The translations under genes and the position numbers were made by a program. Below are positions 30,925 through 49,171 of a stretch of DNA of 64,000 bases, in pieces. The DNA is taken from contig NZ_QMIE01000005.1 of NCBI RefSeq assembly GCF_007625075.1, positions 1-64,000 on the forward strand. The letters run 5' to 3'. Every line of letters begins with the position of its first letter. Within the stretch, counting starts at the first letter, position 1. The DNA comes from Oceanidesulfovibrio indonesiensis. GTDB lineage: Bacteria > Desulfobacterota > Desulfovibrionia > Desulfovibrionales > Desulfovibrionaceae. The notes beneath the pieces were generated by a model. It was not told the origin of the DNA and did not search any database. It was given only the letters and a program-made list of their open reading frames with translations.

Positions 30925-31379
30925 AAGAACTGCGGATCATAGGATTCCTGTGCAACTGGTGCTCCTACGGCGGGGCCGACAGTGCTGGCGTGGCCCGCTA
31001 CAAGCAACCTACGGACATGCGCATCATCCGTCTGCCCTGTACGGGCCGCATGGATCCGTTGTTCGTGCTCAAGGCCTTGCTCGGCGGGGCGGACGGCGTA
31101 CTCGTTTCTGGCTGCCATCCGTTTGATTGCCACTACACCTCGGGTAATTTTTACGCCCGCCGCCGGCTCCAGGTGCTCAAGAGCTACCTGCCGGTGCTGG
31201 GCATCCACGAAGACCGCTTCGAGTACACCTGGGTCTCGGCCTCGGAAGCCGCCAAGTGGCAGTCCGTGGTCACGGCCTTTACCGATAGAATCCACGAACT
31301 GGGCCCCGCGCCCCGGCTGCTCGAACTTGAGGATATGCCCCTGCGCTTCAAGGAGGGTATGGATATATGGCCGAGCTGA
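30906..31379 (+). CDS. flxD: FlxD (MvhD-like) [2Fe-2S] protein, cluster 1
   Basis: A 157-residue protein of the MvhD family. Cysteines in LCNWCSYGGAD, LPCTGRMDP and GCHPFDC are the expected cluster ligands. MvhD-type proteins link the input module (here FlxABC) to HdrA. The start at 30906 was preferred over 30915 because GGAGG lies 10 bp upstream. It overlaps hdrA by 19 bp and flxC by 13 bp. Confidence 0.92.
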   Translation: MSGMDVKELRIIGFLCNWCSYGGADSAGVARYKQPTDMRIIRLPCTGRMDPLFVLKALLGGADGVLVSGCHPFDCHYTSGNFYARRRLQVLKSYLPVLGIHEDRFEYTWVSASEAAKWQSVVTAFTDRIHELGPAPRLLELEDMPLRFKEGMDIWPS

Positions 31380-34231: not shown

Positions 34232-34690
34232 TTACTCAAGCAGGTTGTGTTCCGAGGGTGCTGTCCTTCAGGCTCTCTGGCAGGGAGCCCAATTCCCCGG
34301 GTTGCCAGATGCTTTTCTCGTGGAGAAAGCCCAAGTTCGTCAAAGAAGAGCATTCATAAGCAAAGGCGCCGCCGTGAACGTTTGGACCGGGAGTCACGGT
34401 CCTGGTTCGCGGCGGCGCCTTCCTTCTCCCTCTCCTACCGCTCGAATCCCGTCTGTGGGCGATGCGGGCCGGGCCTTCGCAACCGTAATCCGAGGAGGCG
34501 CGGTGTCAGTCGTGCGCGGGAGTCGGAGCCGCAGAATCCCTTGCGGAGTCTAGTCTTCCAGTACGCGGCGGCCCTCCCTGGCGCGTGGCTTCGTCAACCT
34601 GCGCCGGCACAAGCCCCGACTGCGCCGGGTGCGGTTTTCAGAACGTGCGCCGAGCCGCCTGCGTGCTGGAACGCCAGAGTGCGCGGGGAG
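34232..34690. other. intergenic region between convergent cluster 1 and the glutaredoxin gene
   Basis: Apart from the terminator at 34363-34421, nothing with coding character was recognised in this 459-bp stretch. Frames here overlap one another and show no family features. Confidence 0.6.
34363..34421 (+). terminator. long double hairpin terminating cluster 1
   Basis: A 17-base stem (AAGGCGCCGCCGTGAAC with GTTCGCGGCGGCGCCTT, one mismatch) encloses a second perfect hairpin (GGACCG / CGGTCC). A pyrimidine-rich tail (CCTTCTCCCTCTCC) follows. It stands 130 bp after flxA, between convergent transcription units. Confidence 0.75.
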
Positions 34691-35146
34691 TCATTCGCCG
34701 AGGAGGATTTCGCGAATCCGCTGCTCTTTGGCTCCAATGACCACTTGGTCGCCCACGACGAGGGTGGGGAAGGAAATTTCCGGGTTATAGCCTTTGAGTT
34801 CGCGCATGCGGTGGTTGCGTTCGTCGCCGGCGAGCCGGTCCACATAGAGCGTATCGAAATCCACGTTCAGGGAAATGAGCAGTTCCTTGACCTTGGCGCA
34901 GTGCACGCATGTGCTCAGAGCGAAGAGCTTCGGTTTCGTCATGTCGTCTCCATTGTTCAGCACCATCACGGGAAAGGTCACGGGCGATCGGGTCCGTTCC
35001 AACTCCCGGACGAGGTTTCTGCGGGCAGCCCGCTCAAGATAGTCGATGTAAACGGTGTCATGATCCACGCCGATTTCCACCAGCTGTTGCTGGATCCATG
35101 CGGAGTGGATGCAGAGGCTTCGCGCATACAGGGTGGGCTTGCTCAT
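34691..35146 (-). CDS. tandem glutaredoxin-like protein
   Basis: A 151-residue protein made of two thioredoxin-fold glutaredoxin-like repeats. The second (residues 71-151, starting KPKLFALSTCVHCAKV) has a full CxxC active site (CVHC) and the cis-Pro segment ISFPTLVVGD. The first (residues 1-68, KPTLYARSLCIHSAW) has CIHS, with the resolving Cys replaced by Ser, but keeps the cis-Pro segment (VTFPVMVLN). Only the second half can do dithiol chemistry; the first may act by a monothiol route or bind a partner. The start has AAGGA at 6 bp. It lies 44 bp after nadB. Confidence 0.88.
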   Translation of the reverse strand: MSKPTLYARSLCIHSAWIQQQLVEIGVDHDTVYIDYLERAARRNLVRELERTRSPVTFPVMVLNNGDDMTKPKLFALSTCVHCAKVKELLISLNVDFDTLYVDRLAGDERNHRMRELKGYNPEISFPTLVVGDQVVIGAKEQRIREILLGE

Positions 35147-35190: not shown

Positions 35191-36777
35191 TCATTCCAGG
35201 TGGTGGCAGCCTTTGCTCACCGGGTTGCGCAATGCACTGAGCGCAACGATGTAGGCGGCGTAGCTGCTGTGAAAAATGTCGACGAGCGGCTTGGACACGG
35301 GCGTGCTCTTGTAGAATTCCGTGAGGTTGCCGTAGAGGCTGCGCAGCTCGTCCGCGGCCCGCTTGAGGCGTTGCCTGGTGCGTGTGATTCCCACGTAGTT
35401 CCACATCGTGCTCTGAATGACGTTCCAGTCCTGGGCCAGCAGAGCCGGGTCAGGCGCGTCGCCGTGCATGGGGTCGGCCCAATCGGGTATGTCATCCAGC
35501 AACTTGCGTGCCGCCTTTCTGCCGCGTTTCAGCTGCTTGGAAATATGCACGCCGGCAGCCTCGCCCCAGACCACGCCTTCCAGCAGAGAGGTGCTGGCCA
35601 GACGGTTGGCGCCATGGATCCCGGTGCAGCTGCATTCCCCAACAGCGTAGAGCCCGTCTATGTTGGTGCGGCCATGGACGTCGCTGACTACGCCGCCGCA
35701 CTGGTAGTGCGCGGCCGGCACCACGGGGATTGTGTCGCGGGTGATGTCCAGGCCGAGGTCGAGGCATTTCTTGTGGATCGTGGGAAAACGGCGGGGCAGA
35801 TCGCACGACATGTTCCTGCAATCCAGGAAAACGCACGGATCGCCTGAGCGGTGCAACTCGTCCACAATGGCCCGGGAGACCACGTCGCGGGGAGCGAGCT
35901 CGCCGCGGGGGTCGTAGCGGAGCGCGAAACGCTCTCCCTCGCCGTTGAGCAGGAGCGCGCCTTCGCCACGCATGGCCTCGGTGATGAGAAAGCGCCGCCG
36001 GCTCTTGTGATAGAGGGCCGTGGGGTGGAACTGGACGTATTCGATGTTCATGAGCCGGGCGCCGGCGCGGTGGGCCATGGTCAGCCCGGAACCGCGGGCG
36101 CAACGGGCATTGGTGGAGTGCAGGTAGATGCGGCCCAGCCCGCCGGTGGCGAGCACCGTGGCGTGGGCAAGCACGGTCTCCATTCGCTGTCCCGCGTCGT
36201 TGAAGACGTATGCGCCCAGGCACTGGTTGAGCCGCTGATAGCGATAGGTGAGCGAGCGCGCGTGGTGCTGGCTGGTGAGGAGGTCCACGGCCGTGCGGTT
36301 GGCCAGCACCCGGATGTTCGGATGATTGCCCACTGCCCGCACAAGGCACTGCATGATGGCCCGGCCCGTGAAGTCCGCGCAGTGCAGCACCCGGTGGATG
36401 CTGTGTCCGCCCTCGCGCGTCAGGTCGTACTCTTCGTCCTCGTCCATGCCCCGGGTGGCGAAGCGCACGCCGGCCCGCCGCATGAGGATGCGTTCCACGG
36501 CGCCGGCGCCTTTGGCGGCCAGGTGGCGCACGGCCTTGTTGTATGAATGGAAACAGCCGGCCTTGCTGATGTCCCTGGCGAAGAGCGTGGGCGAGTCGTC
36601 CGCTCCGGGGTAGACGATTCCACCCTGGGCGTAGACAGTATTGCCATCGTCGAGGTTGGAGCCCGAAGTGAGCAGAATCACGTCGAGACCCTGGTCCGCC
36701 ATGGCCAGAGCGGCTGTCGACCCGGCGATGCCGGAGCCGATGACGAGGGCCTGAGCAAAATGTCGAATGTCCGCCAT
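35191..36777 (-). CDS. nadB: L-aspartate oxidase
   Basis: A 528-residue flavoenzyme that oxidises L-aspartate to iminoaspartate in de novo NAD synthesis, using fumarate as acceptor in anaerobes. FAD motif IGSGIAGSTAALAMADQG at the N-terminus, YAQGGIVYPG, the substrate loop EYVQFHPTAL, and GECSCTGIHGANRLASTSL are typical. NadB is told from FrdA by the short capping domain and the EYVQFHPT region. No nadA or nadC is nearby. It follows the TrfA-like gene by 125 bp. Confidence 0.93.
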   Translation of the reverse strand: MADIRHFAQALVIGSGIAGSTAALAMADQGLDVILLTSGSNLDDGNTVYAQGGIVYPGADDSPTLFARDISKAGCFHSYNKAVRHLAAKGAGAVERILMRRAGVRFATRGMDEDEEYDLTREGGHSIHRVLHCADFTGRAIMQCLVRAVGNHPNIRVLANRTAVDLLTSQHHARSLTYRYQRLNQCLGAYVFNDAGQRMETVLAHATVLATGGLGRIYLHSTNARCARGSGLTMAHRAGARLMNIEYVQFHPTALYHKSRRRFLITEAMRGEGALLLNGEGERFALRYDPRGELAPRDVVSRAIVDELHRSGDPCVFLDCRNMSCDLPRRFPTIHKKCLDLGLDITRDTIPVVPAAHYQCGGVVSDVHGRTNIDGLYAVGECSCTGIHGANRLASTSLLEGVVWGEAAGVHISKQLKRGRKAARKLLDDIPDWADPMHGDAPDPALLAQDWNVIQSTMWNYVGITRTRQRLKRAADELRSLYGNLTEFYKSTPVSKPLVDIFHSSYAAYIVALSALRNPVSKGCHHLE

Positions 36778-36902: not shown

Positions 36903-37793
36903 CTACGCGGAAACGCATGTCATCTCCTGTGCGTTGCTGTGCAGCATGTCCGGTTCAAGGGAAAGGAAGCCACAGGCCTCGGCATGGGTGTTGTTGCGGC
37001 GACCCTCGATATGCATGCGCCCGGAAGCTTCCACAGAGAACATGGTGACCGCGCCGTTGCCGACCAGCAAATCCAGGGCGTCCAGGCATTGCTTCTGGAA
37101 TCCGTAGGCGCTCTTGCGGCGCAGACCACTCAACTCGGCGAGGGTGGCGAGGTCTGAGGAGAAACCGGCGGGAAAGACCCAGAGCACGCCGTGCAGCCAT
37201 TTGGCCAGGCCATTGCTTCCCAGGCCGCGCCGTTCGTGCAGCAGCATGTCCAACCCGCGCATGGTGCGAATGGAGTCGGCGAAGTCGTTGTTCACCTCCA
37301 CCAGGCTGGCGCAGGCGGCGCTGTTCAGCAGGGCGCGGTTCACCAGTCGGGTCATGTAGCGGTAGCCATCGCCATCTATGCCGATGGAACATTCCTGGAG
37401 CCTGGTCAGACTGTCGCAGATGCGTTGGCGCATGGCCGCATCGTTGCGCTTGCCGAGGGCTCTGATGAGTGCGGCGTGTTCGATCCAGATACCGCGTCTG
37501 CGAGAGCCGCCGGCGGCCGTGCAATGCAGCAGTATGTCCAGGTCGAACTGGTCGAGGGGCTCGCCGCTGTAGGTGTAGCGTTTCGAGCGGGATGGGCTGG
37601 GCAGCGGCGCGTCGCGCACGTGGCTGCGTTGTCCCGCGCTTGCGGCGAACAAGCCTGAGGCGAAATAGCGCACTGGCTTCTGCACGTTGAAGGAGGCGCG
37701 GGTCGATCCGAAAATATTCGTGTTTGCAAGAGCGAGCGGACCGACGGCGGCGGTGTCTTCGGGGTCATGGAAGGGCAGAGGCGAACTCAGCAT
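36903..37793 (-). CDS. TrfA-like replication-initiator-related protein
   Basis: A 296-residue protein. From about residue 80 it parallels the plasmid initiator TrfA: YTYSGEPLDQFDLDILLH at the start of the conserved part, a winged-helix unit ending DSLTRLQECSIGI, and a second winged-helix unit (FSSDLATLAELSGLRRKSAYGF). TrfA-type proteins bind iterons and open the origin. No iterons were seen nearby, and the gene sits inside a chromosomal metabolic operon. It may be a plasmid relic or a domesticated DNA-binding regulator. The start at 37793 has GAGGA at 7 bp. The assignment is from memory of TrfA and needs a profile search. Confidence 0.6.
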   Translation of the reverse strand: MLSSPLPFHDPEDTAAVGPLALANTNIFGSTRASFNVQKPVRYFASGLFAASAGQRSHVRDAPLPSPSRSKRYTYSGEPLDQFDLDILLHCTAAGGSRRRGIWIEHAALIRALGKRNDAAMRQRICDSLTRLQECSIGIDGDGYRYMTRLVNRALLNSAACASLVEVNNDFADSIRTMRGLDMLLHERRGLGSNGLAKWLHGVLWVFPAGFSSDLATLAELSGLRRKSAYGFQKQCLDALDLLVGNGAVTMFSVEASGRMHIEGRRNNTHAEACGFLSLEPDMLHSNAQEMTCVSA

Positions 37794-37837
37794 GGCTATG
37801 TCCTCGTGTTTGTTCGACCGATGCGCCTGAGGGCGCG

Positions 37838-38494
37838 TCAGGAAAGCTCCTCGTTGTCCTGGATGTTCACAGCTTCCATGGTGCGGAACGCAGCGAGATG
37901 GTCGGGAAGGGCCATGGCGGGCACCGGTTCGTCGTTGCAACGGACGTTTCCGAGACGTTCGAAAAACGACGGGGCCTGGTGGTCCAGAAATTCCAGGAAC
38001 CGTTCGCCGCCAACGTACAAGCCTTTGCGCAGGAAGACGTGCGCGAGTTCGCGCGCGAGGAAATTGAAAAGGCGTACGCGAACGAAGCAGTCGGGGCCTG
38101 TTTCTGTTTCCGTGTCGTCCGGCGCCCTGAGCGAGATGGACTCGCGCATGCGGGCGTAGTAACCGCCGCGGCGCATGGTGGCGCCCACCAGTCCGGGCAT
38201 AGCGGCGGAGAAGGCGAGGTGGTCGCCGGGGTGAACGATGGCTGTATCGAGGTCATCGACAGGCTTGCCGTTCAGAAAAATGGTCTGGATGCGAATCTGG
38301 GTATAGTCGCCGCACACGCCCATCTGGATGCAGAGAAACTCGCGGACAGAGCACCCGGACGAGCAGACCACGCAGAAGCCGCTTTGCAGCAGGAGTTCGA
38401 AATCCTGCGGGTTTCGCGAATGCATCGAGATGCGGGCGACGCGATCGGACGCGAGCGCCTGCGGGGTGGGGTGGAGTTCTTCAAGAATAGTCAT
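37838..38494 (-). CDS. unrecognised protein with a beta-grasp-like (MoaD/ThiS-like) segment
   Basis: A 218-residue protein I do not recognise. Its middle (about residues 40-110) has five cysteines (CVVCSSGC, EFLC, GVCGDY) and a stretch IQTIFLNGKPVDDLD...HPGDHLAFSAAMPGLVGA, which has the shape of MoaD/ThiS-type beta-grasp proteins but no terminal GG. The C-terminal third is hydrophilic and aromatic. The start at 38494 is supported by the family-like start but has a weak ribosome site; the frame is open to 38671 (277 residues). It lies 44 bp before the TrfA-like gene and probably shares its transcript. Confidence 0.6.
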   Translation of the reverse strand: MTILEELHPTPQALASDRVARISMHSRNPQDFELLLQSGFCVVCSSGCSVREFLCIQMGVCGDYTQIRIQTIFLNGKPVDDLDTAIVHPGDHLAFSAAMPGLVGATMRRGGYYARMRESISLRAPDDTETETGPDCFVRVRLFNFLARELAHVFLRKGLYVGGERFLEFLDHQAPSFFERLGNVRCNDEPVPAMALPDHLAAFRTMEAVNIQDNEELS

Positions 38495-38772: not shown

Positions 38773-39246
38773 CTATGCCTTCAAAAGCCCGCGCAGCATG
38801 CGCATGTGGGAGCGTTCTTCCTCGATGCACTGCTGCACCAGCGGCTTCTCGGAGTCGGGCACCAGCTCCTTCATCTCCATGAAGAAAAGCAGTGTGTCCT
38901 TCTCGAAGGCCAATGCGATGTCCACGGCGGATTTCAGGTCGCTGGCCTCGGCCGCCAGCTTTTCGGCCACGCCGCCGTTGAACAGGGCGTGGGATTCGAT
39001 GAGCGCTTCCAGGTAGTCCTGGTACTCGTCCGCATTGGAATAGGCCGGCATCTCGATGTCGCCGAGGCGGTCCTTGAGGGCCTGGAACACGACCTCGTGC
39101 TTGGACTCCTCGCCGGCCATGAAAGTGAACAATTCCCTGGCGGCATCGCTTTGGGCGGCCTTTGCCACGTTGCGGTAGAACGCCTGGCCCTTGCGCTCGA
39201 TTTCCACGGCGGCCTGGGCCACCTCGTTGGCTTTGAAGAATTTCAT
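38773..39246 (-). CDS. rubrerythrin-like ferritin-family protein
   Basis: A 157-residue four-helix protein with the di-iron carboxylate pattern (Glu in AVEIERKGQAFYRN, EESKHEVVF, and EERSHMRML). It lacks the C-terminal rubredoxin domain of classical rubrerythrin. Such proteins reduce peroxide or store iron in anaerobes. The start at 39246 gives the standard MKFFKANEVAQ beginning. It lies 25 bp after flxA of cluster 2, so it is probably made with the Flx complex. Confidence 0.88.
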   Translation of the reverse strand: MKFFKANEVAQAAVEIERKGQAFYRNVAKAAQSDAARELFTFMAGEESKHEVVFQALKDRLGDIEMPAYSNADEYQDYLEALIESHALFNGGVAEKLAAEASDLKSAVDIALAFEKDTLLFFMEMKELVPDSEKPLVQQCIEEERSHMRMLRGLLKA

Positions 39247-39271: not shown

Positions 39272-40117
39272 TCACAGTTCGTTGGGGAGGTCGCCCAGTT
39301 CGGCCGCGGTGAAGACCGGCCCGTCCACACAGACGTACTTGGTGCCGATGTTGCAGCGACCGCAGATGCCGACGCCGCACTTCATGCGCTTTTCCAGGGT
39401 GGTGACGATCTGGGAATCCTCGAAGCCCAGCTTTTTGAGCGCCTGCAGGGTGAACTTGATCATGATGGGCGGACCGCAGGTGACGGCCACAGTGTCCTTC
39501 GCGCCGGGCTCCATCTCCAGAAGCACGTTGGGGATGAGGCCCACGGTGTGCTCCCAGCCCTCGCACGGATTGTCGATGGTGAGCACTGTGTTCAGGTCCT
39601 CGCGCTCCAGCCATTCCGGCAGCTCGTACTGGAACGCCATGTCCTGCGGGCTGCGAGCGCCGTAGAGCAGGGAGATGTCCCCGTAGTCCGCGCGGTTGTC
39701 GAGCATGAACAAGAGCAGGGTGCGCAGGGGCGCCATGCCGATGCCGCCGCCGATGAAGACGATGTTCTTGCCCTTCATGGACTCGTAGGGGAACCAGTTG
39801 CCCAAAGGAGCTCGCACGCCCACCTTGTCCCCGGCCGAGAGCTGGTGGAGCTTGGTCGTGAGCTCGCCGACCCGCATGACGCTGAACTGCAGATAATCCA
39901 TCCGGGTGGGCGGCGAGTTGATGACAAAGGTGGATTCGCCCACGCCGAATACGGAGAGCTGGCCCACCTGGCCCGGTTCGAAGGTGAACGCGTTCATGGC
40001 GTCCTCGTTGTCGAGGACCACGCGGAATGTCTTGATGTTCGGTGTCTCCTGGATGACCTCGCGCACGGTGGCGATCTCCGGGAGATAGAGGTTTTTCTGC
40101 GGCATGTTCGTCATCAT
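39272..40117 (-). CDS. flxA: FlxA-like FAD/NAD(P)H oxidoreductase, cluster 2
   Basis: A 281-residue paralogue of the protein at 33395-34231, with the same layout: FAD barrel (NSPPTRMDYLQF), NAD motif GGGIGMAPLRTLLLF, and C-terminal [2Fe-2S] site (CGVGICGRC, then YVCVDG). It is the expected NADH entry site of the complex, linked to ethanol oxidation by the alcohol dehydrogenase at the head of this operon. The start at 40117 has AGAGGG at 7 bp. Confidence 0.93.
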   Translation of the reverse strand: MMTNMPQKNLYLPEIATVREVIQETPNIKTFRVVLDNEDAMNAFTFEPGQVGQLSVFGVGESTFVINSPPTRMDYLQFSVMRVGELTTKLHQLSAGDKVGVRAPLGNWFPYESMKGKNIVFIGGGIGMAPLRTLLLFMLDNRADYGDISLLYGARSPQDMAFQYELPEWLEREDLNTVLTIDNPCEGWEHTVGLIPNVLLEMEPGAKDTVAVTCGPPIMIKFTLQALKKLGFEDSQIVTTLEKRMKCGVGICGRCNIGTKYVCVDGPVFTAAELGDLPNEL

Positions 40118-40128
40118 CGAGATACCCT

Positions 40129-41196
40129 CTAGCTGGCCTTGGTTTCGGCGGTGGCGGTCTCCATGGCGCGCAGGACTATCTCGCGGATGTCCACGCTGAC
40201 GGGACAGCTCTTGATGCACCGGCCGCAACCGCAGCAGGCGATGAGCCCCTCGTGCAGACCGGGGTAGTAGCTGAACTTGTGGCCGACGCGGTTTTTCAGA
40301 CGATGGGCCTTGGTGGGACGCGGGTTGTGGCCGCTGCCCTCCAGGGTGAAGAGGTAGGACATGCAGTTGTCCCAGGAGCGGATGCGGAAGCCCTGGTTGC
40401 CGCAACTCTCGTCCGTGATGTTGAAGCAGTAGCAGGTGGGGCACAGGTACGTGCAGGCTCCGCAGCTGATGCACTTGGCCGAGACGTCCTGCCAGAACTC
40501 CATATCGTCGAAGAGACGGAGCAGGGCCTCCTGGGCCTCGCTCACGTCCACGGCGTCACCGAGGGAATCGCGCGCGTCCTGCTTCACCTGCGCCGTTGCG
40601 TCCAGTTGCTCCTGAGTGGCATTGTCCAATGTTTTGGACTCGACCAGGGCCTTGCCCTGTTCCGTGATCGGCTCCAGCACGTAGCCCTGGCCGACGGGTG
40701 TGGCAAGCACGTCGCTGCCACGCGTGTCGGCTGGGCCTTCGCCCACCCAGTGGCAGAAGCAGGACGAGGCGGTCTCCTTGCAGACCAGGGAGACGAAGGA
40801 CGTGTTTTTGCGGCGGGCGGCGTAGTAGTGGTCACGCATGCCGTCCGTGTTGTAGACGCGATCGAAGATTGTGAAGCCGCGGGCGTCGCAGGGCCGGCAG
40901 CCGAAGACCACTGTGGGTGCGGCCTCCATTGTGGGCTGCACCGCCACGTCCACTTTCCCGGGGTTTTCTTCGTCCTTGCGGTACTCGAAGGTCATCAGCG
41001 GCTCGCTGGCCGGGAACACGGAACCCTTGGGCGGGGTGGTGGCCTGCGTATCCAGGACTAATTCCTGATCGCCACCCGTGTACGGCTGGAAAGCCACGGC
41101 CGCGTTGTCGCGCACGGGCACGAGCACGCGGTTGCTCGCGGCGAGCTCGTCCAGCCAGGCGGTGAGTCTGTCTGCGGGAATGTACTTGGAAGTCAT
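40129..41196 (-). CDS. flxB: FlxB-like iron-sulfur protein, cluster 2
   Basis: A 355-residue paralogue of 32326-33402. Cysteines CRPCDARG and CFCHWVG are followed by two [4Fe-4S] sites, CISCGACTYLCPTC and CCGCGRCIKSCP (an extra Cys precedes the second). It transfers electrons inside the Flx module. It lies 3 bp after flxC and 11 bp before flxA. Confidence 0.89.
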   Translation of the reverse strand: MTSKYIPADRLTAWLDELAASNRVLVPVRDNAAVAFQPYTGGDQELVLDTQATTPPKGSVFPASEPLMTFEYRKDEENPGKVDVAVQPTMEAAPTVVFGCRPCDARGFTIFDRVYNTDGMRDHYYAARRKNTSFVSLVCKETASSCFCHWVGEGPADTRGSDVLATPVGQGYVLEPITEQGKALVESKTLDNATQEQLDATAQVKQDARDSLGDAVDVSEAQEALLRLFDDMEFWQDVSAKCISCGACTYLCPTCYCFNITDESCGNQGFRIRSWDNCMSYLFTLEGSGHNPRPTKAHRLKNRVGHKFSYYPGLHEGLIACCGCGRCIKSCPVSVDIREIVLRAMETATAETKAS

Positions 41197-41199: not shown

Positions 41200-42159
41200 T
41201 TACCACTCCCTCTCTCGGATGTTCTGCTCCTCCACCTGGAAGGCGAGCAGCGGCGGCGTGGCTTCGGGGTCGATGCCCGCCTCGTAGTCGAAGAGCTCCT
41301 TGAGCTCCTTGTTGATTTTCTTCTTCAGGCCCACGAGGGGGATATCCACGGGGCAGGCTCGCTGGCATTCACCGCATTCGGTGCAGCGGCCTGCAAGGTG
41401 CATGGCGTGGATGAGCTGGAACATCATCTTTTCGCGCACGTCGTGGCGCTGGGAGAGCCAGTTGGGGTCGCGGCTCTGGGCAACGCAGTGGTCGCGGCAC
41501 ACGCACATGGGGCAGGCGTTGCGGCAGGCGTAGCAGCGGATGCAGCGGCTCATCTGCTCTTCCCAGAAGGCCATGCGCTCGGTCGGGGTCTGTTCCTCGA
41601 AAGCGGCGACGTCGGCGTAGACCGCCTCAGCCGGCGCGCTCGGCTCGATGGGCGTGCCCACGAACTCGTCCACCATGACGGCGTTGTGGTACTGACAGAC
41701 CGCGCACTTGTCGGCGCGGACGTCGTCGAAGGCGAGGGTGTGCGTCTGGCCGCCAGCGGTGACAGTGACGGAGCCGTTCTCGAACTGCACGTCGCGCACC
41801 TTGCCGAGGTCGCCCACGGCGTTCCGAATTTTGGACAGATCCACGACGCCCTCGCAGGGCATGCCGAAAATCACGACCTCGTTGCGGTTGATGAGTTTCT
41901 CCTGGAGCAGCTGGACCACGGAGCGGCTGTCGCATCCCTTGACCACGACGCCCACGGTCTTGCCCTTGAGGCCAGTGAGGTACGTGGCCGTGTTGTGCAC
42001 GCACAGGGGGCTCCACTCCAGCTTGTCCACGTCCTTCTCGGATTTCATGAATAACGGGGTGGCGTGGATGGGATCGAATCCCTTGCCCCAGCCGATGACC
42101 ACGTCAAGCTCGGGCAGCCGCTTTTTGATGGCGGTCTGGAGTTCCTCAAGAAGCGACAC
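41200..42159 (-). CDS. flxC: FlxC-like iron-sulfur protein, cluster 2
   Basis: A 319-residue paralogue of 31367-32326, exactly the same length. The N-terminal half keeps VVKGCDSRSV, GMPCEGVV and DKCAVCQYH. The C-terminal half has CIRCYACRNACPMCVC and CTECGECQRACP. The start is a GTG at 42159, chosen because AGGAGG lies 6 bp upstream and the length then equals the paralogue; no suitable ATG exists. It overlaps the flxD end by 14 bp. Confidence 0.9.
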   Translation of the reverse strand: MSLLEELQTAIKKRLPELDVVIGWGKGFDPIHATPLFMKSEKDVDKLEWSPLCVHNTATYLTGLKGKTVGVVVKGCDSRSVVQLLQEKLINRNEVVIFGMPCEGVVDLSKIRNAVGDLGKVRDVQFENGSVTVTAGGQTHTLAFDDVRADKCAVCQYHNAVMVDEFVGTPIEPSAPAEAVYADVAAFEEQTPTERMAFWEEQMSRCIRCYACRNACPMCVCRDHCVAQSRDPNWLSQRHDVREKMMFQLIHAMHLAGRCTECGECQRACPVDIPLVGLKKKINKELKELFDYEAGIDPEATPPLLAFQVEEQNIREREW

Positions 42160-42661
42160 GTTCCACCTCCTGTTTCTCGGTGGCCTTCCCGCCTGCGCTG
42201 TCCAGCAATTTGGACAATCTCGCTTCCACCTGCTCCGGCGTGGCGCCGAAGGGTTTGATTGGGCCGATGGCATGGACCTCGTTGGTGAAGGTCTGAACAA
42301 CCTTCTGCCAGCGTTGGCCTTCAGAGGCCGAGACCCAGGTATACGCGAAACGCTCGGGCTCGATGCCTATGTAGGGCATGAGTCGTTGAAGGATTTCCAG
42401 CCGGCGTCGGGCGTAGAAGTTGCCTTCGGAATAATGGCAGTCGCGCGGGTGGCAACCCGACACGAGCACGCCGTCGGCGCCGTTCATGAACGTGCGCAGG
42501 ATGAACAGCGGGTCGATGCGGCCGGAGCATGGAACCCGGATGATGCGCAGGTCCGTGGGCTGGGCGAACCGGCCCACGCCGGCGGTGTCGGCGCCGCCGT
42601 AGGAGCACCAGTTGCACAGGAAGCCGACTATTCGAAGCTCTTTTCCAGCAAGGGGGGGCAT
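42146..42661 (-). CDS. flxD: FlxD (MvhD-like) [2Fe-2S] protein, cluster 2
   Basis: A 171-residue MvhD-family protein with LCNWCSYGGAD, VPCSGRIDP and GCHPRDC. It is 14 residues longer than the cluster 1 copy, with a charged C-terminal tail. It should connect FlxABC with HdrA. It overlaps the end of hdrA by 34 bp. Confidence 0.92.
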   Translation of the reverse strand: MPPLAGKELRIVGFLCNWCSYGGADTAGVGRFAQPTDLRIIRVPCSGRIDPLFILRTFMNGADGVLVSGCHPRDCHYSEGNFYARRRLEILQRLMPYIGIEPERFAYTWVSASEGQRWQKVVQTFTNEVHAIGPIKPFGATPEQVEARLSKLLDSAGGKATEKQEVERVAS

Positions 42662-44607
42662 AATGACATAACCTCTGCGAGAATCTGGTTGTCTGTGAAG
42701 TGCTGCAGCTGAATGGCGCCCTGCGGACACGTGGAGGTGCAGATGCCGCAGCCCTGGCACACGGTCTCGATGACCTCGGCCTTGGGTTGTCCGCGGAAAT
42801 CGATTTCCTTGATGGCGCCGAAGGGACAGGTGCTGATGCACTTGCCGCAGCCGATGCAGCGCTTGATGTCCACCTGGGATATCTGGGGATCGCTCTCCAG
42901 CTGATCCTTGGAGAACAGGGTGAGCACCTTGGATGCGGCGGCGCTGCCCTGGCCCACGGAGGACGGGATGTCCTTGGGGCCCTGGCAGCAGCCGGCCAGG
43001 AAGACGCCGGCGGTGTTGGTTTCCACCGGTTTCAGTTTGGGGTGGCTCTCCATGTAGAAGCCGTATGTGTCGTAGGAGATGCGCAGCTTCTCCGCGAGAG
43101 CGGACGCGCCGCGGGTGGATTCCGCGCCCACCGCGAGCACCACGAGATCGGCCTCCACCTCGATGGAGGTGCCGGTCAGGGTGTCGGCGCCGCGCACGAT
43201 GAGCTTGTCGCCTTTCTCGTACACCTGGGCCACGCGGCCGCGGATGTAGCGGGCTCCGTACTCCTCCATGGCCCGGCGGGTGAACTCGTCGTAGTTCTTA
43301 CCCGGCGAGCGGATGTCCATGTAGAAGACGTAGGATTGGGAGTCCGGGATGTGGTCCTTGGTGAGGATGGTCTGTTTGGCTGTGTACATGCAGCAGAAGC
43401 CGGAGCAGTAAGGCCGGTTCACGGACTTGTCGCGCGAGCCCACGCACTGGATGAAGACCACGCTTTTGGGCTCCTCGCCGTTGGAGGGCCGCTTCACGTG
43501 GCCGCCGGTGGGACCGGAAGCCGAAAGCATGCGCTCGTACTGCATGGAGGTGATGACGTCCCGGATGCGGCCGCCGCCGTACTCGGTGTAGATGCTGTGG
43601 TCGAAGAGGTCGTAGCCAGTGGCGGCGACGATGGCTCCCACCTCCTCGTGCGCGATCTCTTCCTTTTGGTCGAAGCGGATGGCCTCGGTGGGACAGACCT
43701 CTGCGCATTTGCCGCATTTGCCCTTGCGCAGCATGATGCAGGTTTCGGCATTGATGGAGGCTTTTTTGGGAATGGCCTGGGGAAAGGGGATGTTGATGGC
43801 CGTGGTGGTGCCGACGAACTCGTTGAACGGGTCGGGCGTCTTCTTGCTCGGGCACTTCTCCATGCACAGGCCGCAGCCGGTGCAGAGGTTCCAGTCCACG
43901 TAGGTCTGCTTCCTGCGGATTGCCACTTTGAAGTTGCCCACGTAGCCGGAGACGTCGTCCACCTCGGCGGCTGCGTAGAGCGTGATGTTGGGATGCTGGG
44001 CCACGTCCACCATCTTGGGACCCAGGATGCAGCTGGAGCAGTCCACTGTAGGGAAGGTCTTGTCCAGCTTGGCCATCTTGCCGCCGATGGTCGTTGTCTT
44101 TTCCACAAGCACGACCTCGAGGCCGCCTTCTGCGCAGTCCAGGGCGGCCTGGATGCCGGCCACGCCGCCGCCGATGATCATGACGCGCTTGTTGATGTCG
44201 AACTTCTTGGGGAAGAGGAGGCGGTTCTCGCGCAGCTTGGCCACGGCCATGGCCACCAGATCGGCGGCCTTGTTGGTGTTGGACTCCATGTCCTTGCCGA
44301 TCCAGGAGACGTGCTCGCGGATGTTGGCCATTTCGAACATGTAGCGGTTCAGGCCGGCGCGTTCCACTGTGCGGCGGAATGTCGCCTCGTGCATGCGCGG
44401 GGTGCAGCTGGCCACGACCACGCCGTCGAGCTCGTTCTCCTTGACGGCGTCGATGATGCCTTCCTGGCCTGGCTCGGAGCACGCGTACATGGTGTCCGTG
44501 GCAAAGGCCACGCCGGGCAGGGCGCGTGCGGCTTCCGCCACCTGCGCGGTATCCACGGTACCGGCGATGTTCGATCCGCAGTGGCAGACGAAGACTCCGA
44601 TTTTCAT
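42628..44607 (-). CDS. hdrA: HdrA-like flavin-bifurcating subunit, cluster 2
   Basis: A 659-residue paralogue of 28957-30924. It has the N-terminal Cys domain (VCHCGSN, CSEPGQ, ASCTPRMH), FAD motif IGGGVAGIQAALDCA, inserted ferredoxin sites CTGCGLCMEKCP and KCGKCAEVCP, and C-terminal sites CIGCGKCISTCP and CQGCGICTSTCP. Unlike the cluster 1 copy, the last site has the usual Pro. The start has AAGGAG upstream. It lies 78 bp after hdrB, the widest gap between hdr and flx genes here. Confidence 0.96.
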   Translation of the reverse strand: MKIGVFVCHCGSNIAGTVDTAQVAEAARALPGVAFATDTMYACSEPGQEGIIDAVKENELDGVVVASCTPRMHEATFRRTVERAGLNRYMFEMANIREHVSWIGKDMESNTNKAADLVAMAVAKLRENRLLFPKKFDINKRVMIIGGGVAGIQAALDCAEGGLEVVLVEKTTTIGGKMAKLDKTFPTVDCSSCILGPKMVDVAQHPNITLYAAAEVDDVSGYVGNFKVAIRRKQTYVDWNLCTGCGLCMEKCPSKKTPDPFNEFVGTTTAINIPFPQAIPKKASINAETCIMLRKGKCGKCAEVCPTEAIRFDQKEEIAHEEVGAIVAATGYDLFDHSIYTEYGGGRIRDVITSMQYERMLSASGPTGGHVKRPSNGEEPKSVVFIQCVGSRDKSVNRPYCSGFCCMYTAKQTILTKDHIPDSQSYVFYMDIRSPGKNYDEFTRRAMEEYGARYIRGRVAQVYEKGDKLIVRGADTLTGTSIEVEADLVVLAVGAESTRGASALAEKLRISYDTYGFYMESHPKLKPVETNTAGVFLAGCCQGPKDIPSSVGQGSAAASKVLTLFSKDQLESDPQISQVDIKRCIGCGKCISTCPFGAIKEIDFRGQPKAEVIETVCQGCGICTSTCPQGAIQLQHFTDNQILAEVMSLCPPLLEKSFE

Positions 44608-44685: not shown

Positions 44686-45582
44686 CTACTGGGCGACATG
44701 CGACTGCTCCTGGATGGCACGCAGAACTTTGTCCGGGTTCACGGCCAGTTTATCGAATCCCAGCTGCTTCTCCGGCAAACCGAGGGCGAGGCCGATGAGC
44801 TGGGTGTAGTAAAAGACCGGCATGTTGTAGCGGGATTTGTTGGCGGCGTTGATCTGCCCCTGGCGCAGGTCGAGGTTCATCTGGCACAGGGGGCATGCCG
44901 CGACCATGGCCATGGCGTTCTCAGCGTAGGCCAGTTCGATGAGCCGGCCGGACAGGGTCGTGACCACGTCCTTTTGGGCGATGCCGTGAGAGGCGCCGCA
45001 GCACTCCACCTTGAGACCGAAGGGCACGACATCCGCGCCCAGGGCGGAGAGAATCTCGTCCATGGCGATGGGGTTCTCCGGGTCGTCGAACTGCATGACG
45101 TCGGGCGGCCTGTTCATGATGCAACCGTAATATGGCGCTACAGCCAGGCCACTGAGCGGCCGCACCACCTGCTGGCGAATGGTTTCCGGACCAACGTCCT
45201 CGTAGATCACCTGGAGCACGGACTTGACCGTCACGGTGTTGTTCGCCGGCTTGTCCAGCAGGGCGTCCACCTTTTGCTTGAAGGCCGGGTTTTCCATGCG
45301 GTGGGTGGCCGTCTTCAGGTTGGTGAGGCAGCTGGGACAGGGGGTGATGATGGTGTCCAGGCCCATGGACTCCGCAATGGACAGATTGCGTCCGGACAGG
45401 GCGGCGGAAAGCACGTGGTCCACGGTGTGCGCTGGCGTGGAGCCGCAGCAGCTCCAGTCTTCCAGGTCCACCAGCTTGATGCCCAGAGCCTCGCAGACAG
45501 CCCGGGTGGAGCGCTCGTACTCCATGGAAGTGCCCATGCCGGAACAGCCCGGATAGTAGCCGAACGTACGAGCCTCGCTCAT
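44686..45582 (-). CDS. hdrB: HdrB-like subunit with two CCG domains, cluster 2
   Basis: A 298-residue paralogue of 28052-28960 with both CCG domains complete: YYPGC, WSCCGSTPAH, CPSC and YYGC, ECCGAS, CPLC. Predicted to reduce a protein or small disulfide; DsrC is the proposed partner in sulfate reducers. The start overlaps the hdrC stop (ATGA). Confidence 0.95.
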   Translation of the reverse strand: MSEARTFGYYPGCSGMGTSMEYERSTRAVCEALGIKLVDLEDWSCCGSTPAHTVDHVLSAALSGRNLSIAESMGLDTIITPCPSCLTNLKTATHRMENPAFKQKVDALLDKPANNTVTVKSVLQVIYEDVGPETIRQQVVRPLSGLAVAPYYGCIMNRPPDVMQFDDPENPIAMDEILSALGADVVPFGLKVECCGASHGIAQKDVVTTLSGRLIELAYAENAMAMVAACPLCQMNLDLRQGQINAANKSRYNMPVFYYTQLIGLALGLPEKQLGFDKLAVNPDKVLRAIQEQSHVAQ

Positions 45583-46136
45583 CGTTGCTGCTCCTTGTAG
45601 CGCTCAAATATCTTGGCCACTTCGTCGCGGCCCTGAATGCGGTGCGGTTTGAAGGATATCTTGCCTTTGGGAAGAATCTTGCGGCCGAGGTCGGCGTCGG
45701 TCCAGAACCGGCGGGTCTTGGTCATGTAGTTGGCCATGAGGCCCATCTCAAACACGCGGCCGTGCTTTTCCACGGAATCGAGGAACGCATCCACGAAGGA
45801 CCGGACGTTCGGCACGGTGTTGTAATTGTAGCGGCGGGCCATGTGGCGCAGCACGTCCATGATCCGGGCCACGTCGATGCCGTTGGGGCAACGGGTGGTG
45901 CAGGATTCGCACGTGGCGCATATCCAGATCGACTTGCAGCCCAGGACTTTGTCCTTCTGACCGGTTTGCGAGAGCCGCATGATCTGGCTGACCGGGATGT
46001 CGTAAGCGAAGTTGTACGGGCAACCGGCGGTGCAGTTGCCGCATTGGTAGCAGAGCCGCACGTTCTGTTCGCTTTCGGCTTCCACCTCGGCGACGAATGC
46101 CGGGTCGTAGGAGTGCGTGATGTTGATGACTTCCAT
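45579..46136 (-). CDS. hdrC: HdrC-like iron-sulfur protein, cluster 2
   Basis: A 185-residue paralogue of 27492-28052 with CYQCGNCTAGCP and CATCESCTTRCP. The start at 46136 (MEVINITH) has AAGGA at 5 bp; the longer in-frame reading to 46319 crosses the intercistronic hairpin and has no family support. First hdr gene after adh. Confidence 0.93.
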   Translation of the reverse strand: MEVINITHSYDPAFVAEVEAESEQNVRLCYQCGNCTAGCPYNFAYDIPVSQIMRLSQTGQKDKVLGCKSIWICATCESCTTRCPNGIDVARIMDVLRHMARRYNYNTVPNVRSFVDAFLDSVEKHGRVFEMGLMANYMTKTRRFWTDADLGRKILPKGKISFKPHRIQGRDEVAKIFERYKEQQR

Positions 46137-46328: not shown

Positions 46329-47510
46329 TTACATGGCGGCTTCGTAAATGGCGGCCACGTCCTCGTCTTTGGGGCAGCGAGGGTTGGTGAATCCGCAGGC
46401 GTCTTTCTGCGCGTTGGCGGTCATGATCGCGATATCCTCGAACTTGACCTGCTTGCCGTAACGCTTGCCCAGCTCGACCAGGCCGGCCGGGATACCGATG
46501 TCGGTGGAGAGACGCTTGATCTCGTCGAGAGCCACTTCGGCGGCGTCGCGCTTGGACATGCCGGCAATGTTGGCGCCCATGATCTCGGCCATCTTGGCGA
46601 AGCGGTCCACCTTGGCGATGAGATTGAACTTCTCCACGTGGGGCAGGAGAATGGCGTTGCACTCGCCGTGAGGCAGATCGTAGAAGCCGCCCAACTGGTG
46701 CGCCATGGCGTGCACGTGGCCCAGGGAGGCGTTGTTGAAAGCCATGCCGGCCAGATACTGGGCGAAGCACATGCCTTCGCGGGCTTCGATGTCCTGACCG
46801 TTGGCCACGGCGGCGCGCAGGTGCTTGAACACGAGTTCAATGGCCTTCTCGGCGCAGGCGTCGGTCATGGGGGTGGCGATGGTGGAGACGTATGCTTCCA
46901 CAGCGTGGGTCAGAGCGTCCATGCCGGTGGCGGCGGTGAGCGCGGGAGGCATGCCGACCATCAGCAGCGGGTCGTCCAAAGCGATGTTCGGGGTCACGCG
47001 CCAGTCCACGATGGCCATCTTCACCTTGCGGGAAAGATCGGTGATGATGCAGAAGCGGGTCATTTCGGAGGCGGTGCCGGCGGTGGTGTTCACGGCCACG
47101 TAGGGCGGCAGCGGCTTGGTGGACTTGTCGATGCCTTCGTAGTCATGAATCTTGCCGCCGTTGGAAACGACGAGGCCGATGCCCTTGCCGCAGTCGTGAG
47201 AAGAACCGCCGCCCAGGGTGATGAGGCTGTCGCACTTGTTCTCTTTGTAGATGTCAACGCCCTTGTGGACGTTCTCATCGGTGGGGTTGGGGATGGTTTC
47301 GTCATACACGGCGTACTGCATGCCGGCGTCGTCCATCAGATCGGTGATCTGCTTGAGGATGCCGGCGCCGACAATGCCTTTGTCAGTGACGATCAGGGGT
47401 TTCTTGCCGCCGAGGTCTTTGATTTTACCAGGAATTTCTTTGGCCGCGCCAATTCCGATGAGCGTGACGTTCGGGATGAAGAAACCATACACTTGTTCAC
47501 GAACACTCAT
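46329..47510 (-). CDS. adh: iron-containing alcohol dehydrogenase, head of cluster 2
   Basis: A 393-residue NAD-dependent enzyme of the Fe-ADH family. It has the nucleotide-binding GGGSSHDCGKGIG, the NTTAGTASEMTRF segment, and the metal ligands in GMDALTHAVEAY and GHVHAMAHQLGGFYDLPHGECN (Asp and three His). It oxidises ethanol or reduces acetaldehyde. The start at 47510 has GGAG at 6 bp; the in-frame ATGs upstream contain this site. A sigma-54 promoter lies 73-88 bp upstream. In D. vulgaris an adh gene also heads an hdr-flx cluster and is highly expressed (family knowledge). Confidence 0.95.
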   Translation of the reverse strand: MSVREQVYGFFIPNVTLIGIGAAKEIPGKIKDLGGKKPLIVTDKGIVGAGILKQITDLMDDAGMQYAVYDETIPNPTDENVHKGVDIYKENKCDSLITLGGGSSHDCGKGIGLVVSNGGKIHDYEGIDKSTKPLPPYVAVNTTAGTASEMTRFCIITDLSRKVKMAIVDWRVTPNIALDDPLLMVGMPPALTAATGMDALTHAVEAYVSTIATPMTDACAEKAIELVFKHLRAAVANGQDIEAREGMCFAQYLAGMAFNNASLGHVHAMAHQLGGFYDLPHGECNAILLPHVEKFNLIAKVDRFAKMAEIMGANIAGMSKRDAAEVALDEIKRLSTDIGIPAGLVELGKRYGKQVKFEDIAIMTANAQKDACGFTNPRCPKDEDVAAIYEAAM

Positions 47511-47801: not shown

Positions 47802-47821
47802 TCAGAGGTGTGCTCACTCTT

Positions 47822-49171
47822 TCACAATCCGTATTTTTCAAGCTTACGGTACAAAGTTTTTCTTCCGATACCCAGGGCCTGCGCCGTCTTCTGGCGGTTG
47901 CCGCCGTATAAGGACAGCATGTGCAGGATGTGCTCTTTTTCCATGGATTCCAGTGTGTTGGCGCCAAAACTCTGATCCGTCGAGTTTTCTGTATGCTGAC
48001 GGTCCACGAGCTCCTTGGGTAATGAGCTTTCCGTCACAAGGCCGTTCTCTGCGAGGATGAGGCTGCGCTCCAGCACGTTGCGCAACTCACGCACGTTACC
48101 GGGCCAGTTGTAGGAAAGCAGGCAGCCCATTGCCTTTTCCGAGATTGCCGCGGAATCGGCCCGGGGGGAGAGCCGACCCAGGAAATGTTCCACGAGCAAC
48201 GGGATGTCTTCCTTGCGCTCGCGCAGAGGCGGAATCTCGATTTTGAAGACGTTGATGCGATGGAACAGCGCCTCGTTGAACTCGCCGTCCTCCACAGCAG
48301 CCGCGAGGTTACGGTTGGTGGCGAAGAGGAAGCGGATGTCAGCCTGGCGTTCCTCTTTCCCGCCTATGCGCCGGTATTTCTTGGCTTCCAGCACGCGCAG
48401 GAGGGAAGCCTGCACTTCCAGGGGCAGATCGCCTATCTCGTCCAGGAAGAGAGAGCCCTTGTTGGCGTAGGCTATGAGGCCCTCCTGGCTTTCCGTGGCG
48501 CCGGTGAAGGAGCCCTTGGCATGGCCGAAGAGTTCGCTGCGCATGAGTTCGCGCTGGAGAGTCGCGCAGTTCTTGATAATGAGCGGCTCCGTCGCGCGGT
48601 TGCTGCGGTCGTGGATGGCCCGCGCGACCACGTCCTTGCCCACGCCGGACTCGCCGGTGAGCAGCACGGGGACGTCCGTGGGCGCGACCTTCTCCACGAG
48701 ATAGAGAATCTGCTTGATAGCCTTGGACTTGCCGATGAGTCGCCCGAAGAGGTTGTCTTCGCCTTGGGAGAGACGCAGGCCGCGGTTTTCGCGTTGCAGG
48801 CAGACGCGCTGGAAGGCGCGGTCCATGACGAGTTCCAACCGGTCCAGTGCGAAGGGCTTGGGGATATAGTCGTACGCGCCCATGCGCATGGCCACCACGG
48901 CGCTGTCGATGTCGCCGTGGCCGGTGATGAGCACAATCTCCACATCCGGGATGCGGCCCTTGAACTCCTCGAACAGTTCCAGCCCGTCGGCGTCCGGCAG
49001 GCGGATGTCCAGAGCGATGACGTCGAACATCTTCCGGGCGAGTTTTTCGCGGGCTTCCCTGGCCGTGGAAGCTGTCTCGATTTCACGGTCCTCCGTGGAG
49101 AATTCCTTTTCGAGAAGCCGAAGGATGGGTTGTTCGTCGTCCACGACGAGAACGCTGTACTTGTTAGCCAT
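47822..49171 (-). CDS. NtrC-type sigma-54-dependent response regulator next to adh
   Basis: A 449-residue activator with receiver (acidic VVDDEQ; acceptor Asp in DVIALDIRLPDADG, near 55), AAA+ domain (Walker A GESGVGKD; loop GSFTGA, a Ser variant of GAFTGA; LFLDEIGDLP) and a Fis-type helix-turn-helix (NRQKTAQALGIGRKTLYRKL). It overlaps the kinase gene by 8 bp. Its probable target is the sigma-54 promoter before adh, by position and by the conserved arrangement known in D. vulgaris. Confidence 0.95.
   Translation of the reverse strand: MANKYSVLVVDDEQPILRLLEKEFSTEDREIETASTAREAREKLARKMFDVIALDIRLPDADGLELFEEFKGRIPDVEIVLITGHGDIDSAVVAMRMGAYDYIPKPFALDRLELVMDRAFQRVCLQRENRGLRLSQGEDNLFGRLIGKSKAIKQILYLVEKVAPTDVPVLLTGESGVGKDVVARAIHDRSNRATEPLIIKNCATLQRELMRSELFGHAKGSFTGATESQEGLIAYANKGSLFLDEIGDLPLEVQASLLRVLEAKKYRRIGGKEERQADIRFLFATNRNLAAAVEDGEFNEALFHRINVFKIEIPPLRERKEDIPLLVEHFLGRLSPRADSAAISEKAMGCLLSYNWPGNVRELRNVLERSLILAENGLVTESSLPKELVDRQHTENSTDQSFGANTLESMEKEHILHMLSLYGGNRQKTAQALGIGRKTLYRKLEKYGL

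What the first reader, a model, noticed from the sequence alone, without database searches (positions are those of the whole stretch)
36903..38494. TrfA-like initiator and a Cys-rich beta-grasp-like protein inside a chromosomal redox operon
A protein resembling the plasmid initiator TrfA lies between nadB and a family I do not recognise, all downstream of the Flx cluster. No iterons, partition genes or other plasmid genes are seen. It could be a relic of an integrated replicon or a winged-helix protein taken over for regulation.
Basis: inference. Interest (0 to 1): 0.55.

Follow-up and report, generated by a model that had tools for sequence, protein, structure and literature searches.

The report
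Plasmid initiator domesticated in ethanol operon
A protein descended from a plasmid replication starter has been kept, without any plasmid machinery, inside the chromosomal ethanol-metabolism operon of many sulfate-reducing bacteria, where it most likely now switches genes instead of copying DNA.

Summary
The TrfA resemblance is real. The protein at 36903-37793(-) misses Pfam's TrfA model, but is homologous to plasmid TrfA by tblastn (best E 5e-8), profile-profile comparison (99.9%, E 1.6e-32) and predicted tandem winged-helix fold (RctB Z 15.3, RepE54 13.7). It is not a plasmid relic. In Desulfovibrionaceae, 57 of 62 TrfA-like matches sit downstream of, and co-oriented with, alcohol dehydrogenase-HdrCBA-FlxDCBA-rubrerythrin(-AOR) genes and lie on one side of a 100/99 branch, apart from 30 other TrfA proteins. 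Listed adh-led flx clusters carry it in 45 of 46 cases (the miss is an assembly break), others in 6 of 104. It is under purifying selection, diverges in step with HdrA (r 0.93), lacks iterons (1 of 57, against 21 of 29 other TrfA loci) and has clade-specific cysteines. Best reading: a domesticated initiator regulating this operon. Precedent: plasmid TrfA represses a host promoter. No operator was found; function is inferred. The neighbour (37838-38494) is an aldehyde-ferredoxin-oxidoreductase companion whose family is not Cys-rich and whose beta-grasp fold is unproven; the pair is not fixed (9 of 57). DVU2397 of D. vulgaris is the predicted orthologue, untested.

The parts
36903..37793 (-). 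TrfA-like tandem winged-helix protein (P0001, 296 aa), domesticated initiator
37838..38494 (-). P0002, AOR-companion protein of unknown fold (218 aa; alternative start 38671 gives 277 aa)
38773..39246 (-). rubrerythrin-like protein (Rbr)
   Evidence: PF02915 E 4.6e-10
39272..40117 (-). FlxA-type NAD/flavin + FeS subunit
   Evidence: flx names given by order, compare PMC10920352 table
40129..41196 (-). FlxB-type subunit
   Evidence: NCBIfam HydB/ShyB/AsrA-like, below cut-offs
41200..42159 (-). FlxC-type 4Fe-4S subunit
42146..42661 (-). FlxD-type subunit (FlpD/MvhD family)
   Evidence: PF02662 E 4e-50
42628..44607 (-). HdrA
   Evidence: NF040770 E 3.7e-247 (822 bits, cut-off 1100)
44686..45582 (-). 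HdrB (named by position; not profiled)
45579..46136 (-). HdrC (named by position; not profiled)
46329..47510 (-). iron-containing alcohol dehydrogenase, leading gene of the operon
   Evidence: PF00465 / PF25137
47511..47821 (-). operon promoter region with GTCATTTTGACCCA-type elements (about 47768-47804); attributed to the NtrC-type regulator, not to the TrfA-like protein
47822..49171 (-). sigma54-dependent NtrC-type response regulator
49164..50465 (-). histidine kinase (named by position and reading; not profiled)
50459..51610 (-). second iron-containing alcohol dehydrogenase
35191..36777 (-). NadB-type (L-aspartate oxidase) flavoprotein, downstream partner in part of the loci
   Evidence: TIGR00551 478.9 bits over cut-off 452.75
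34691..35146 (-). double-domain glutaredoxin-like protein
   Evidence: PF00462 E 1.6e-13 on residues 74-136

Best explanation
P0001 belongs to a chromosomal group that shares ancestry with plasmid TrfA initiators. It has no replicon context and has been kept as a protein dedicated to the adh-hdrCBA-flxDCBA-rbr(-aor) operon. Shown here: homology, predicted fold, location, near-perfect coupling to the adh-led operon, grouping apart from other TrfA, purifying selection, absence of iterons. Inferred: it still binds DNA through its two winged-helix domains and adjusts transcription of its own operon (and perhaps of aor, nadB, grx or adh2-HK-RR next door), as a local brake or modulator beside the sigma54/NtrC two-component pair. 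Speculative: the clade-specific cysteines (C91, position 163, C274) let it sense thiol redox state or a metal, tying operon output to electron flow.
For: TrfA homology; the A1 model matches in all 42 named loci, best E per locus 1e-111 to 4e-15 in a small database, 29 of the 42 being outside Desulfovibrionaceae with no operon marker in the held stretch. Fold. Location: 57 of 62 matches in the operon neighbourhood, co-oriented with the upstream genes. One side of a branch, 100/99, 0 of 500 shuffles as low, unrooted. 45 of 46 listed adh-led flx clusters have it against 6 of 104 not adh-led; the one miss ends 194 bp after flxA at a contig end. Co-divergence with HdrA, Mantel r 0.933, n 44, 0 of 2000 permutations. 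dN/dS 0.08-0.41 in 16 chosen pairs. Basic core, net charge +8.4 against +7.2 in other TrfA. Iterons in 1 of 57 against 21 of 29 (shuffled 0.0 and 0.1). Downstream adh2 starts within about 4 nt of its end in 6 loci. Precedent: plasmid TrfA binds and represses PexsC in P. aeruginosa (PMC12691604; abstract and section 11 read).
Against: No operator found: the conserved promoter element also stands before adh genes that have no flx or TrfA-like gene nearby (5 of 6), so it fits the NtrC-type regulator. The WH2 recognition helix has fewer basic residues than in other TrfA (K/R 3.0 against 4.2), so DNA binding is not assured. An adh-led operon probably without the gene exists in G061, though contig breaks leave this open; G001 copy 1 and G265 copy 1 have the gene without adh. 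adh without flx carries no TrfA-like gene (0 of 6, five of them with NtrC near adh), so it is not simply the regulator of adh. The window protein lacks the cysteine at position 163 (S163, with C161 nearby). No expression, binding or mutant data.
Confidence: 0.55

Rival explanations
1. Relic of an integrated plasmid or ICE: a decaying initiator left behind in the operon.
For: The family is plasmid-borne elsewhere; two unlinked Desulfovibrionaceae TrfA lie with MobA/toxin-antitoxin-like or ParA-like genes and 4 iteron-like units (L176, L180; gene kinds read by eye).
Against: Same place in 15 genera, one side of a well-supported branch, purifying selection, co-divergence with HdrA, no iterons.
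Confidence: 0.08
2. DNA-binding protein with a structural or replication role rather than transcription: a weak local origin, copy-number or replication-fork function at the operon.
For: Best structural match is RctB, initiator of Vibrio chromosome 2. G001 holds two hdr-flx-rbr copies 99.6% identical over 6190 bp with diverged TrfA-like genes; but G061, which seems to lack the gene, holds three flx copies, so extra copies do not need it.
Against: No iterons in 56 of 57; by eye, no partition or helicase-loader genes alongside in the window.
Confidence: 0.1
3. A protein-protein role: the fold serves as scaffold or accessory factor for the Hdr-Flx-Adh enzymes and does not bind DNA.
For: Coupling is to the adh+flx enzyme block rather than to the regulator pair: adh with NtrC but without flx lacks it (0 of 5, L288-L292). 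WH2 recognition helix less basic.
Against: Core stays basic and the DQxDxD and W[LMV] motifs remain in 56 of 57; the best solved fold kin are DNA-binding initiators. L044 keeps the gene with adh-AOR without hdr/flx between.
Confidence: 0.17
4. Regulator acting mainly outside the operon (trans targets), using the operon only as its expression site.
For: The P. aeruginosa TrfA paper has a section headed 'Global regulatory role of the TrfA' (heading seen only, PMC12691604).
Against: Tight linkage in cis across 15 genera suggests local function.
Confidence: 0.1

Closest known systems
TrfA, plasmid replication initiator (Pfam PF07042)
   Same: Alignable core 39-269, shared motifs (G-x-x-[LF]DQxDLD, LAxWLHG), tandem winged-helix fold
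   Different: No PF07042 hit, chromosomal operon location, no iterons, separate side of the tree, extra conserved cysteines
RctB (initiator of Vibrio chromosome 2) and RepE54 / Pi / RepA initiators (Rep_3 type)
   Same: Two winged-helix domains in similar arrangement; RctB Z 15.3, RepE54 13.7, Pi 12.7, RepA WH1 11.0
   Different: About 9-12% identity; Pfam scan of homologues gives Rep3_N or RPA only below cut-off
TrfA acting as repressor of the host exsC promoter in Pseudomonas aeruginosa (PMC12691604)
   Same: TrfA-family protein affecting chromosomal transcription by direct promoter binding
   Different: There the protein is still a plasmid initiator acting on a foreign chromosome; here it is a resident chromosomal gene of one operon
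FlxABCD-HdrABC / adh operon of Desulfovibrio vulgaris Hildenborough, DVU2405-2397, controlled by DVU2394 (PMC3333781; PMC4641369 gives DVU2405-DVU2399)
   Same: Same gene order adh-hdrCBA-flx, followed by adh2 and the regulator; five held loci (L170, L171, L173-L175) also have a fused FlxDC
   Different: The passages I saw do not say what DVU2397 and DVU2398 encode; identity with the TrfA-like and rbr genes is my prediction

Membership tests
TrfA (PF07042) | Match to Pfam TrfA profile above curated cut-off | tested here: not met
   P0001: 0 families at E<=1; 0 of 5 clade members, against 5 of 5 other TrfA. One search found it in 0 of 99 family genomes but rang in no control either, so that search alone shows nothing
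TrfA (PF07042) | Sequence homology to plasmid TrfA over the core | tested here: met
   best E 5e-8; hhalign 99.9%, E 1.6e-32, columns 39-269
TrfA (PF07042) | Shared DQxDxD and W[LMV] motifs (chosen by me from the alignment) | tested here: met
   56 of 57 clade members each; 27 and 28 of 30 other TrfA
TrfA (PF07042) | Iterons / oriV beside the gene | tested here: not met
   1 of 57 (window: none) against 21 of 29; shuffled means 0.0 and 0.1
TrfA (PF07042) | Plasmid or mobile-element location | tested here: not met
   57 of 62 family matches in the metabolic operon neighbourhood
TrfA (PF07042) | Iteron binding and replication initiation | not testable with these tools
   needs bench work
Rep_3-type tandem winged-helix initiators (RepE, Pi, RctB) | WH1-WH2 fold | tested here: met
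   model pLDDT 85
Rep_3-type tandem winged-helix initiators (RepE, Pi, RctB) | Sequence profile match (Rep3_N PF01051) | tested here: not met
   P0001 has no Pfam hit at E<=1; among relatives one hit, L087, E 0.043, below cut-off
ThiS/MoaD beta-grasp (for P0002) | Match to PF02597 ThiS | tested here: not met
   1 of 30 members at E 0.075; P0002 itself 0 families
ThiS/MoaD beta-grasp (for P0002) | Beta-grasp fold | tested here: inconclusive
   model pLDDT 38 from two sequences

The most novel reading that the evidence does not exclude
A plasmid initiator was captured once in an ancestor of Desulfovibrionaceae, lost its origin, gained conserved cysteines and became the dedicated redox-responsive regulator of the adh-Hdr-Flx ethanol electron-bifurcation operon: an exapted replication initiator as resident metabolic regulator.
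Probability: 0.25. Interest if true: 0.8.

Novelty: new variant of a known kind. Interest (0 to 1): 0.6.

Why it matters
Plasmid initiators are known as replication proteins. An origin-less group tied to one metabolic operon and diverging in step with it would be a clear case of an initiator turned into a chromosomal regulator. It also offers a candidate for missing control of adh/flx expression: for hnd, adh and aor of Solidesulfovibrio fructosivorans one paper says the mechanism of regulation 'remains to be elucidated' (PMC10084766, passages), and Solidesulfovibrio loci are among those that carry the gene. If DVU2397 is the orthologue, it can be tested in a genetically tractable model.

Tried and rejected
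Pfam, NCBIfam, PHROGs (best E 0.23) and PADLOC gave nothing useful for P0001 or P0002. Solved-structure sequence search: 0 chains for the TrfA-like profile at E<=10, 3 chains at E 0.29 or worse for P0002. Rfam and tRNA scans of the window: 0. Iteron searches around the window gene were negative. The GTCATTTTGACCCA element before adh was considered as the TrfA-like operator and rejected: it stands before 35 of 40 TrfA-positive adh genes, but also before 5 of 6 adh genes without flx or TrfA-like gene nearby, and before 3 of 20 hdrC-led TrfA-negative clusters (14 bases, 3 mismatches allowed; shuffled means 1.6, 0.2 and 0.5). Whether it is the DVU2394 motif was not tested. The fold of P0002 failed. 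The P0002-TrfA pair as a unit was rejected (9 of 57). A beta-clamp-type Q[LM]xLF motif (recalled) was found in 0 of 57 and 0 of 30, so it tells nothing. Absence from print: searches listed no paper that by title or abstract start treats a TrfA-like gene in this operon; only the held open-access library was searched, no supplements; PMC5088516 was opened and held no whole-word TrfA. The DVU2394 evolution paper PMC8319347 was seen in passages and not used.

Limits: genomes of one genus are not independent, so Fisher's p (1.8e-30) overstates certainty. The flxA and adh lists were cut by the tool's output: 150 flxA places (those listed) and 116 adh places (those I copied of the listed) were used. 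The 20 TrfA-negative clusters were chosen by me from the listed flxA places. The tree is unrooted; some rows have long branches or odd composition (one search says so). dN/dS is NG86, rough at high dS. Starts of homologues are approximate. Gene names in other genomes rest on similarity to window genes. Gene calls came from my own simple caller, which in high-GC stretches called some antisense ORFs (judged by eye). The shuffles were of two-base blocks, 10 per set. L087-L099 partly or wholly repeat genomes also searched under G handles (matching contig lengths), so they are not extra evidence. The neighbours of L179 were scanned for operon markers only (none).

Full report
WHAT IS THERE. On the minus strand the window holds a run of genes from a response regulator and alcohol dehydrogenase (adh, 46329-47510) through HdrC, HdrB, HdrA, FlxD, FlxC, FlxB, FlxA and rubrerythrin to P0002 (37838-38494), the TrfA-like P0001 (36903-37793), a NadB-type flavoprotein and a double glutaredoxin. 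By coordinates the gap P0002-P0001 is 44 bp and P0001-nadB 125 bp. A second flx cluster, without adh and without a TrfA-like gene, converges from the other side (27-34 kb).

IS IT TrfA? Pfam, NCBIfam and PHROGs show no TrfA match for P0001. PF07042 was sought in 99 family genomes with 0 matches, but it rang in none of the 14 control genomes either, so that search alone proves nothing. Yet tblastn against plasmids returns 36 records, 32 with a TrfA-annotated gene under the match, best E 5e-8, at 22-30% identity. A profile of 10 relatives aligned to 22 plasmid-type TrfA proteins gives 99.9% and E 1.6e-32 over columns 39-269. Five of five other TrfA proteins pass PF07042, while none of five clade members does. 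The AlphaFold2 model (pLDDT 85) is a tandem winged-helix protein whose best solved matches are RctB domains 2-3 (Foldseek E 2.1e-6, Z 15.3), RepE54 (Z 13.7; 14.1 for one Rep-DUE complex), Pi (12.7) and RepA WH1 (11.0).

WHERE DOES IT OCCUR? With the 10-row profile, 59 of 288 Desulfovibrionaceae genomes match, 62 places in all. I fetched the surroundings of all of them (the window's own from the window) and scored markers. In 57 of 62 the gene lies downstream of and co-oriented with this set. In 52 of the 57 at least one hdr/flx gene is in the stretch. The other five show only rbr, adh, aor or the HK-NtrC pair: L044 truly lacks hdr/flx between adh and the gene; L046, L151, L154 and L172 lie near contig ends. 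One further match (L177) is cut by a contig end but is followed by adh2-HK-NtrC. Four (L176, L178, L179, L180) are unlinked, with no operon marker. Two of these, L176 and L180, lie with genes that read like mobilisation, toxin-antitoxin or partition genes and have runs of 4 iteron-like units; L178 and L179 have runs of 2. Linked genomes span 15 genera (17 of 44 matched, less the two with unlinked matches only). Among the named loci, all 13 Desulfovibrionaceae ones (including Pseudodesulfovibrio, Solidesulfovibrio, Humidesulfovibrio and Halodesulfovibrio) carry operon markers and 0 of the 29 others do. In a draw of 395 genomes from the phylum 10 match, the window's own and G167 among them; two of the loci outside the family that I read (L211, L214) stand beside genes that look like conjugation genes (by eye).

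COUPLING. Using the listed flxA and adh places, 46 flx clusters have adh upstream within 9 kb on the same strand; 45 have the TrfA-like gene within 5.5 kb downstream. The miss, G081, ends 194 bp after flxA at a contig end (contig 21794 bases), and its TrfA-like gene lies near the start of another contig. Of 104 flx clusters without adh, 6 have it. Four of those six lie on short contigs; G001 copy 1 and G265 copy 1 are true exceptions. In a direct look, 40 of 42 upstream stretches of TrfA-positive operons held this adh, against 0 of 20 TrfA-negative clusters chosen for comparison. adh without flx had no TrfA-like gene (0 of 6, L287-L292; in five of the six NtrC is near); in G010 and G074 adh1 and adh2-HK-NtrC are neighbours with the whole hdr-flx-rbr-trfA block absent from between them. 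Against this, G061 probably has an adh-led operon (flxA-rbr-AOR-nadB) without the gene, though contig breaks leave it open.

EVOLUTION. The 57 linked proteins form one side of a branch with 100/99 support; the 30 others (27 named ones and 3 unlinked) form the other; the tree is unrooted. L177 (truncated) and L180 (very weak) were left out, as were L109 and L120 (broken). TrfA-like distances follow HdrA (Mantel r 0.933, n 44) and FlxA (0.833, n 50), 0 of 2000 permutations each, while the TrfA-like protein diverges far faster (mean p-distance 0.69 against 0.19). dN/dS lies between 0.08 and 0.41 in 16 chosen pairs. In G001 two hdr-flx-rbr copies are 99.6% identical over 6190 bp (and 99.4% over 622 bp further upstream), but their TrfA-like genes only about 79%.

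NO REPLICON LEFT. A run of at least 3 units at 19-25 bp pitch within 1 kb of the gene occurs in 1 of 57 linked loci (L049; by eye a low-complexity tandem after the gene) and in 21 of 29 other TrfA loci, the positive control; shuffled stretches give means of 0.0 and 0.1. The window itself has none.

HOW IT PROBABLY WORKS. The core stays basic and the family motifs persist, so DNA binding is likely but not shown; the WH2 recognition helix has fewer basic residues than in other TrfA. Placement after the enzyme genes, or a few nucleotides before adh2-HK-NtrC (6 loci), suits a feedback or modulating regulator. The operon already has a sigma54 system: in D. vulgaris DVU2394 'regulates the DVU2405-2397 operon' and its site is a direct repeat (PMC3333781, passages); a later paper lists the target as DVU2405-DVU2399 (PMC4641369, passage). 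A sigma54-like pattern lies upstream of 37 of 40 adh-led TrfA-positive operons (not in the window's), 1 of 20 hdrC-led TrfA-negative clusters and 5 of 6 adh genes without flx (shuffled means 0.3, 0.4, 0.1). The GTCATTTTGACCCA-like element follows the same distribution (35 of 40, 3 of 20, 5 of 6), so I assign it to NtrC, not to the TrfA-like protein. Clade-specific cysteines: C91 in 53 of 57 (others 4 of 30), position 163 in 42 of 57 (0 of 30; absent in the window protein, which has C161), C274 in 44 of 57 (0 of 30); 7.5 against 3.7 Cys per protein. A redox switch is attractive next to rubrerythrin, glutaredoxin and ferredoxin enzymes, but it is speculation. The precedent that a TrfA protein can act on a chromosomal promoter is experimental (PMC12691604; abstract and section 11 read).

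THE NEIGHBOUR P0002. It has homologues in 36 of 59 genomes, the own one included. Of 35 distinct homologous ORFs held, 31 have an aldehyde ferredoxin oxidoreductase gene within the held stretch, co-directional or divergent; the window copy has none beside it. In L050, from the same genome, AOR, a P0002 paralogue and a ThiS-family gene stand together. The consensus holds an FLDGxPVDD stretch, an SAAMPGLxGATMRR stretch and an LFN stretch; no cysteine is conserved. I read it as an AOR companion, perhaps for tungsten-cofactor handling (inference). It directly precedes the TrfA-like gene in 9 of 57 loci.

MODEL ORGANISM. Published D. vulgaris Hildenborough numbering runs adh1 DVU2405, hdrCBA 2404-2402, flxCD 2401, flxB 2400, flxA 2399, adh2 2396 (PMC10920352 table), with DVU2394 as regulator. 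Five held loci (L170, L171, L173-L175) have a fused FlxDC too and carry rbr and the TrfA-like gene between flxA and adh2. This predicts DVU2398 = rbr-like and DVU2397 = TrfA-like. That genome was not identified among those I searched, so this is untested; the words DVU2397 and DVU2398, so written, occur in no held paper.

Noticed in passing
window 27492-34231 (+): A second hdr-flx cluster, without adh, rubrerythrin or TrfA-like gene, converges on the first; FlxA 72% identical to that of the first.
   Followed up: partly
window 34363-34421: A 17-nt inverted repeat (94% complementary, 25 nt loop) lies between the two convergent clusters, a possible shared terminator.
   Followed up: no
window 34691-35146 (-): Double glutaredoxin: only the second half matches PF00462 and has the CxxC (CVHC); the first half reads CIHS, so may be inactive.
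   Followed up: no
L041 and L042 (G001): Two hdr-flx-rbr copies 99.6% identical over 6.2 kb in one chromosome, with near-identity ending before the diverged TrfA-like genes: recent duplication or gene conversion.
   Followed up: partly
L283-L286 (G061): Three flx copies at or near contig ends, one with FlxC in pieces, in a genome whose adh-led operon seems to lack the TrfA-like gene.
   Followed up: partly
L290, L291 (G010, G074): adh1 directly followed by adh2-HK-NtrC, with the whole hdr-flx-rbr-trfA block missing from between them.
   Followed up: partly
L102-L105: Desulfobulbaceae/Desulfocapsaceae contigs with TrfA genes and runs of 7-14 iteron-like units beside them: likely plasmids or integrated replicons.
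   Followed up: no
window 102-977 (-): ORF that reads like a transposase at the edge of the window (by eye only).
   Followed up: no
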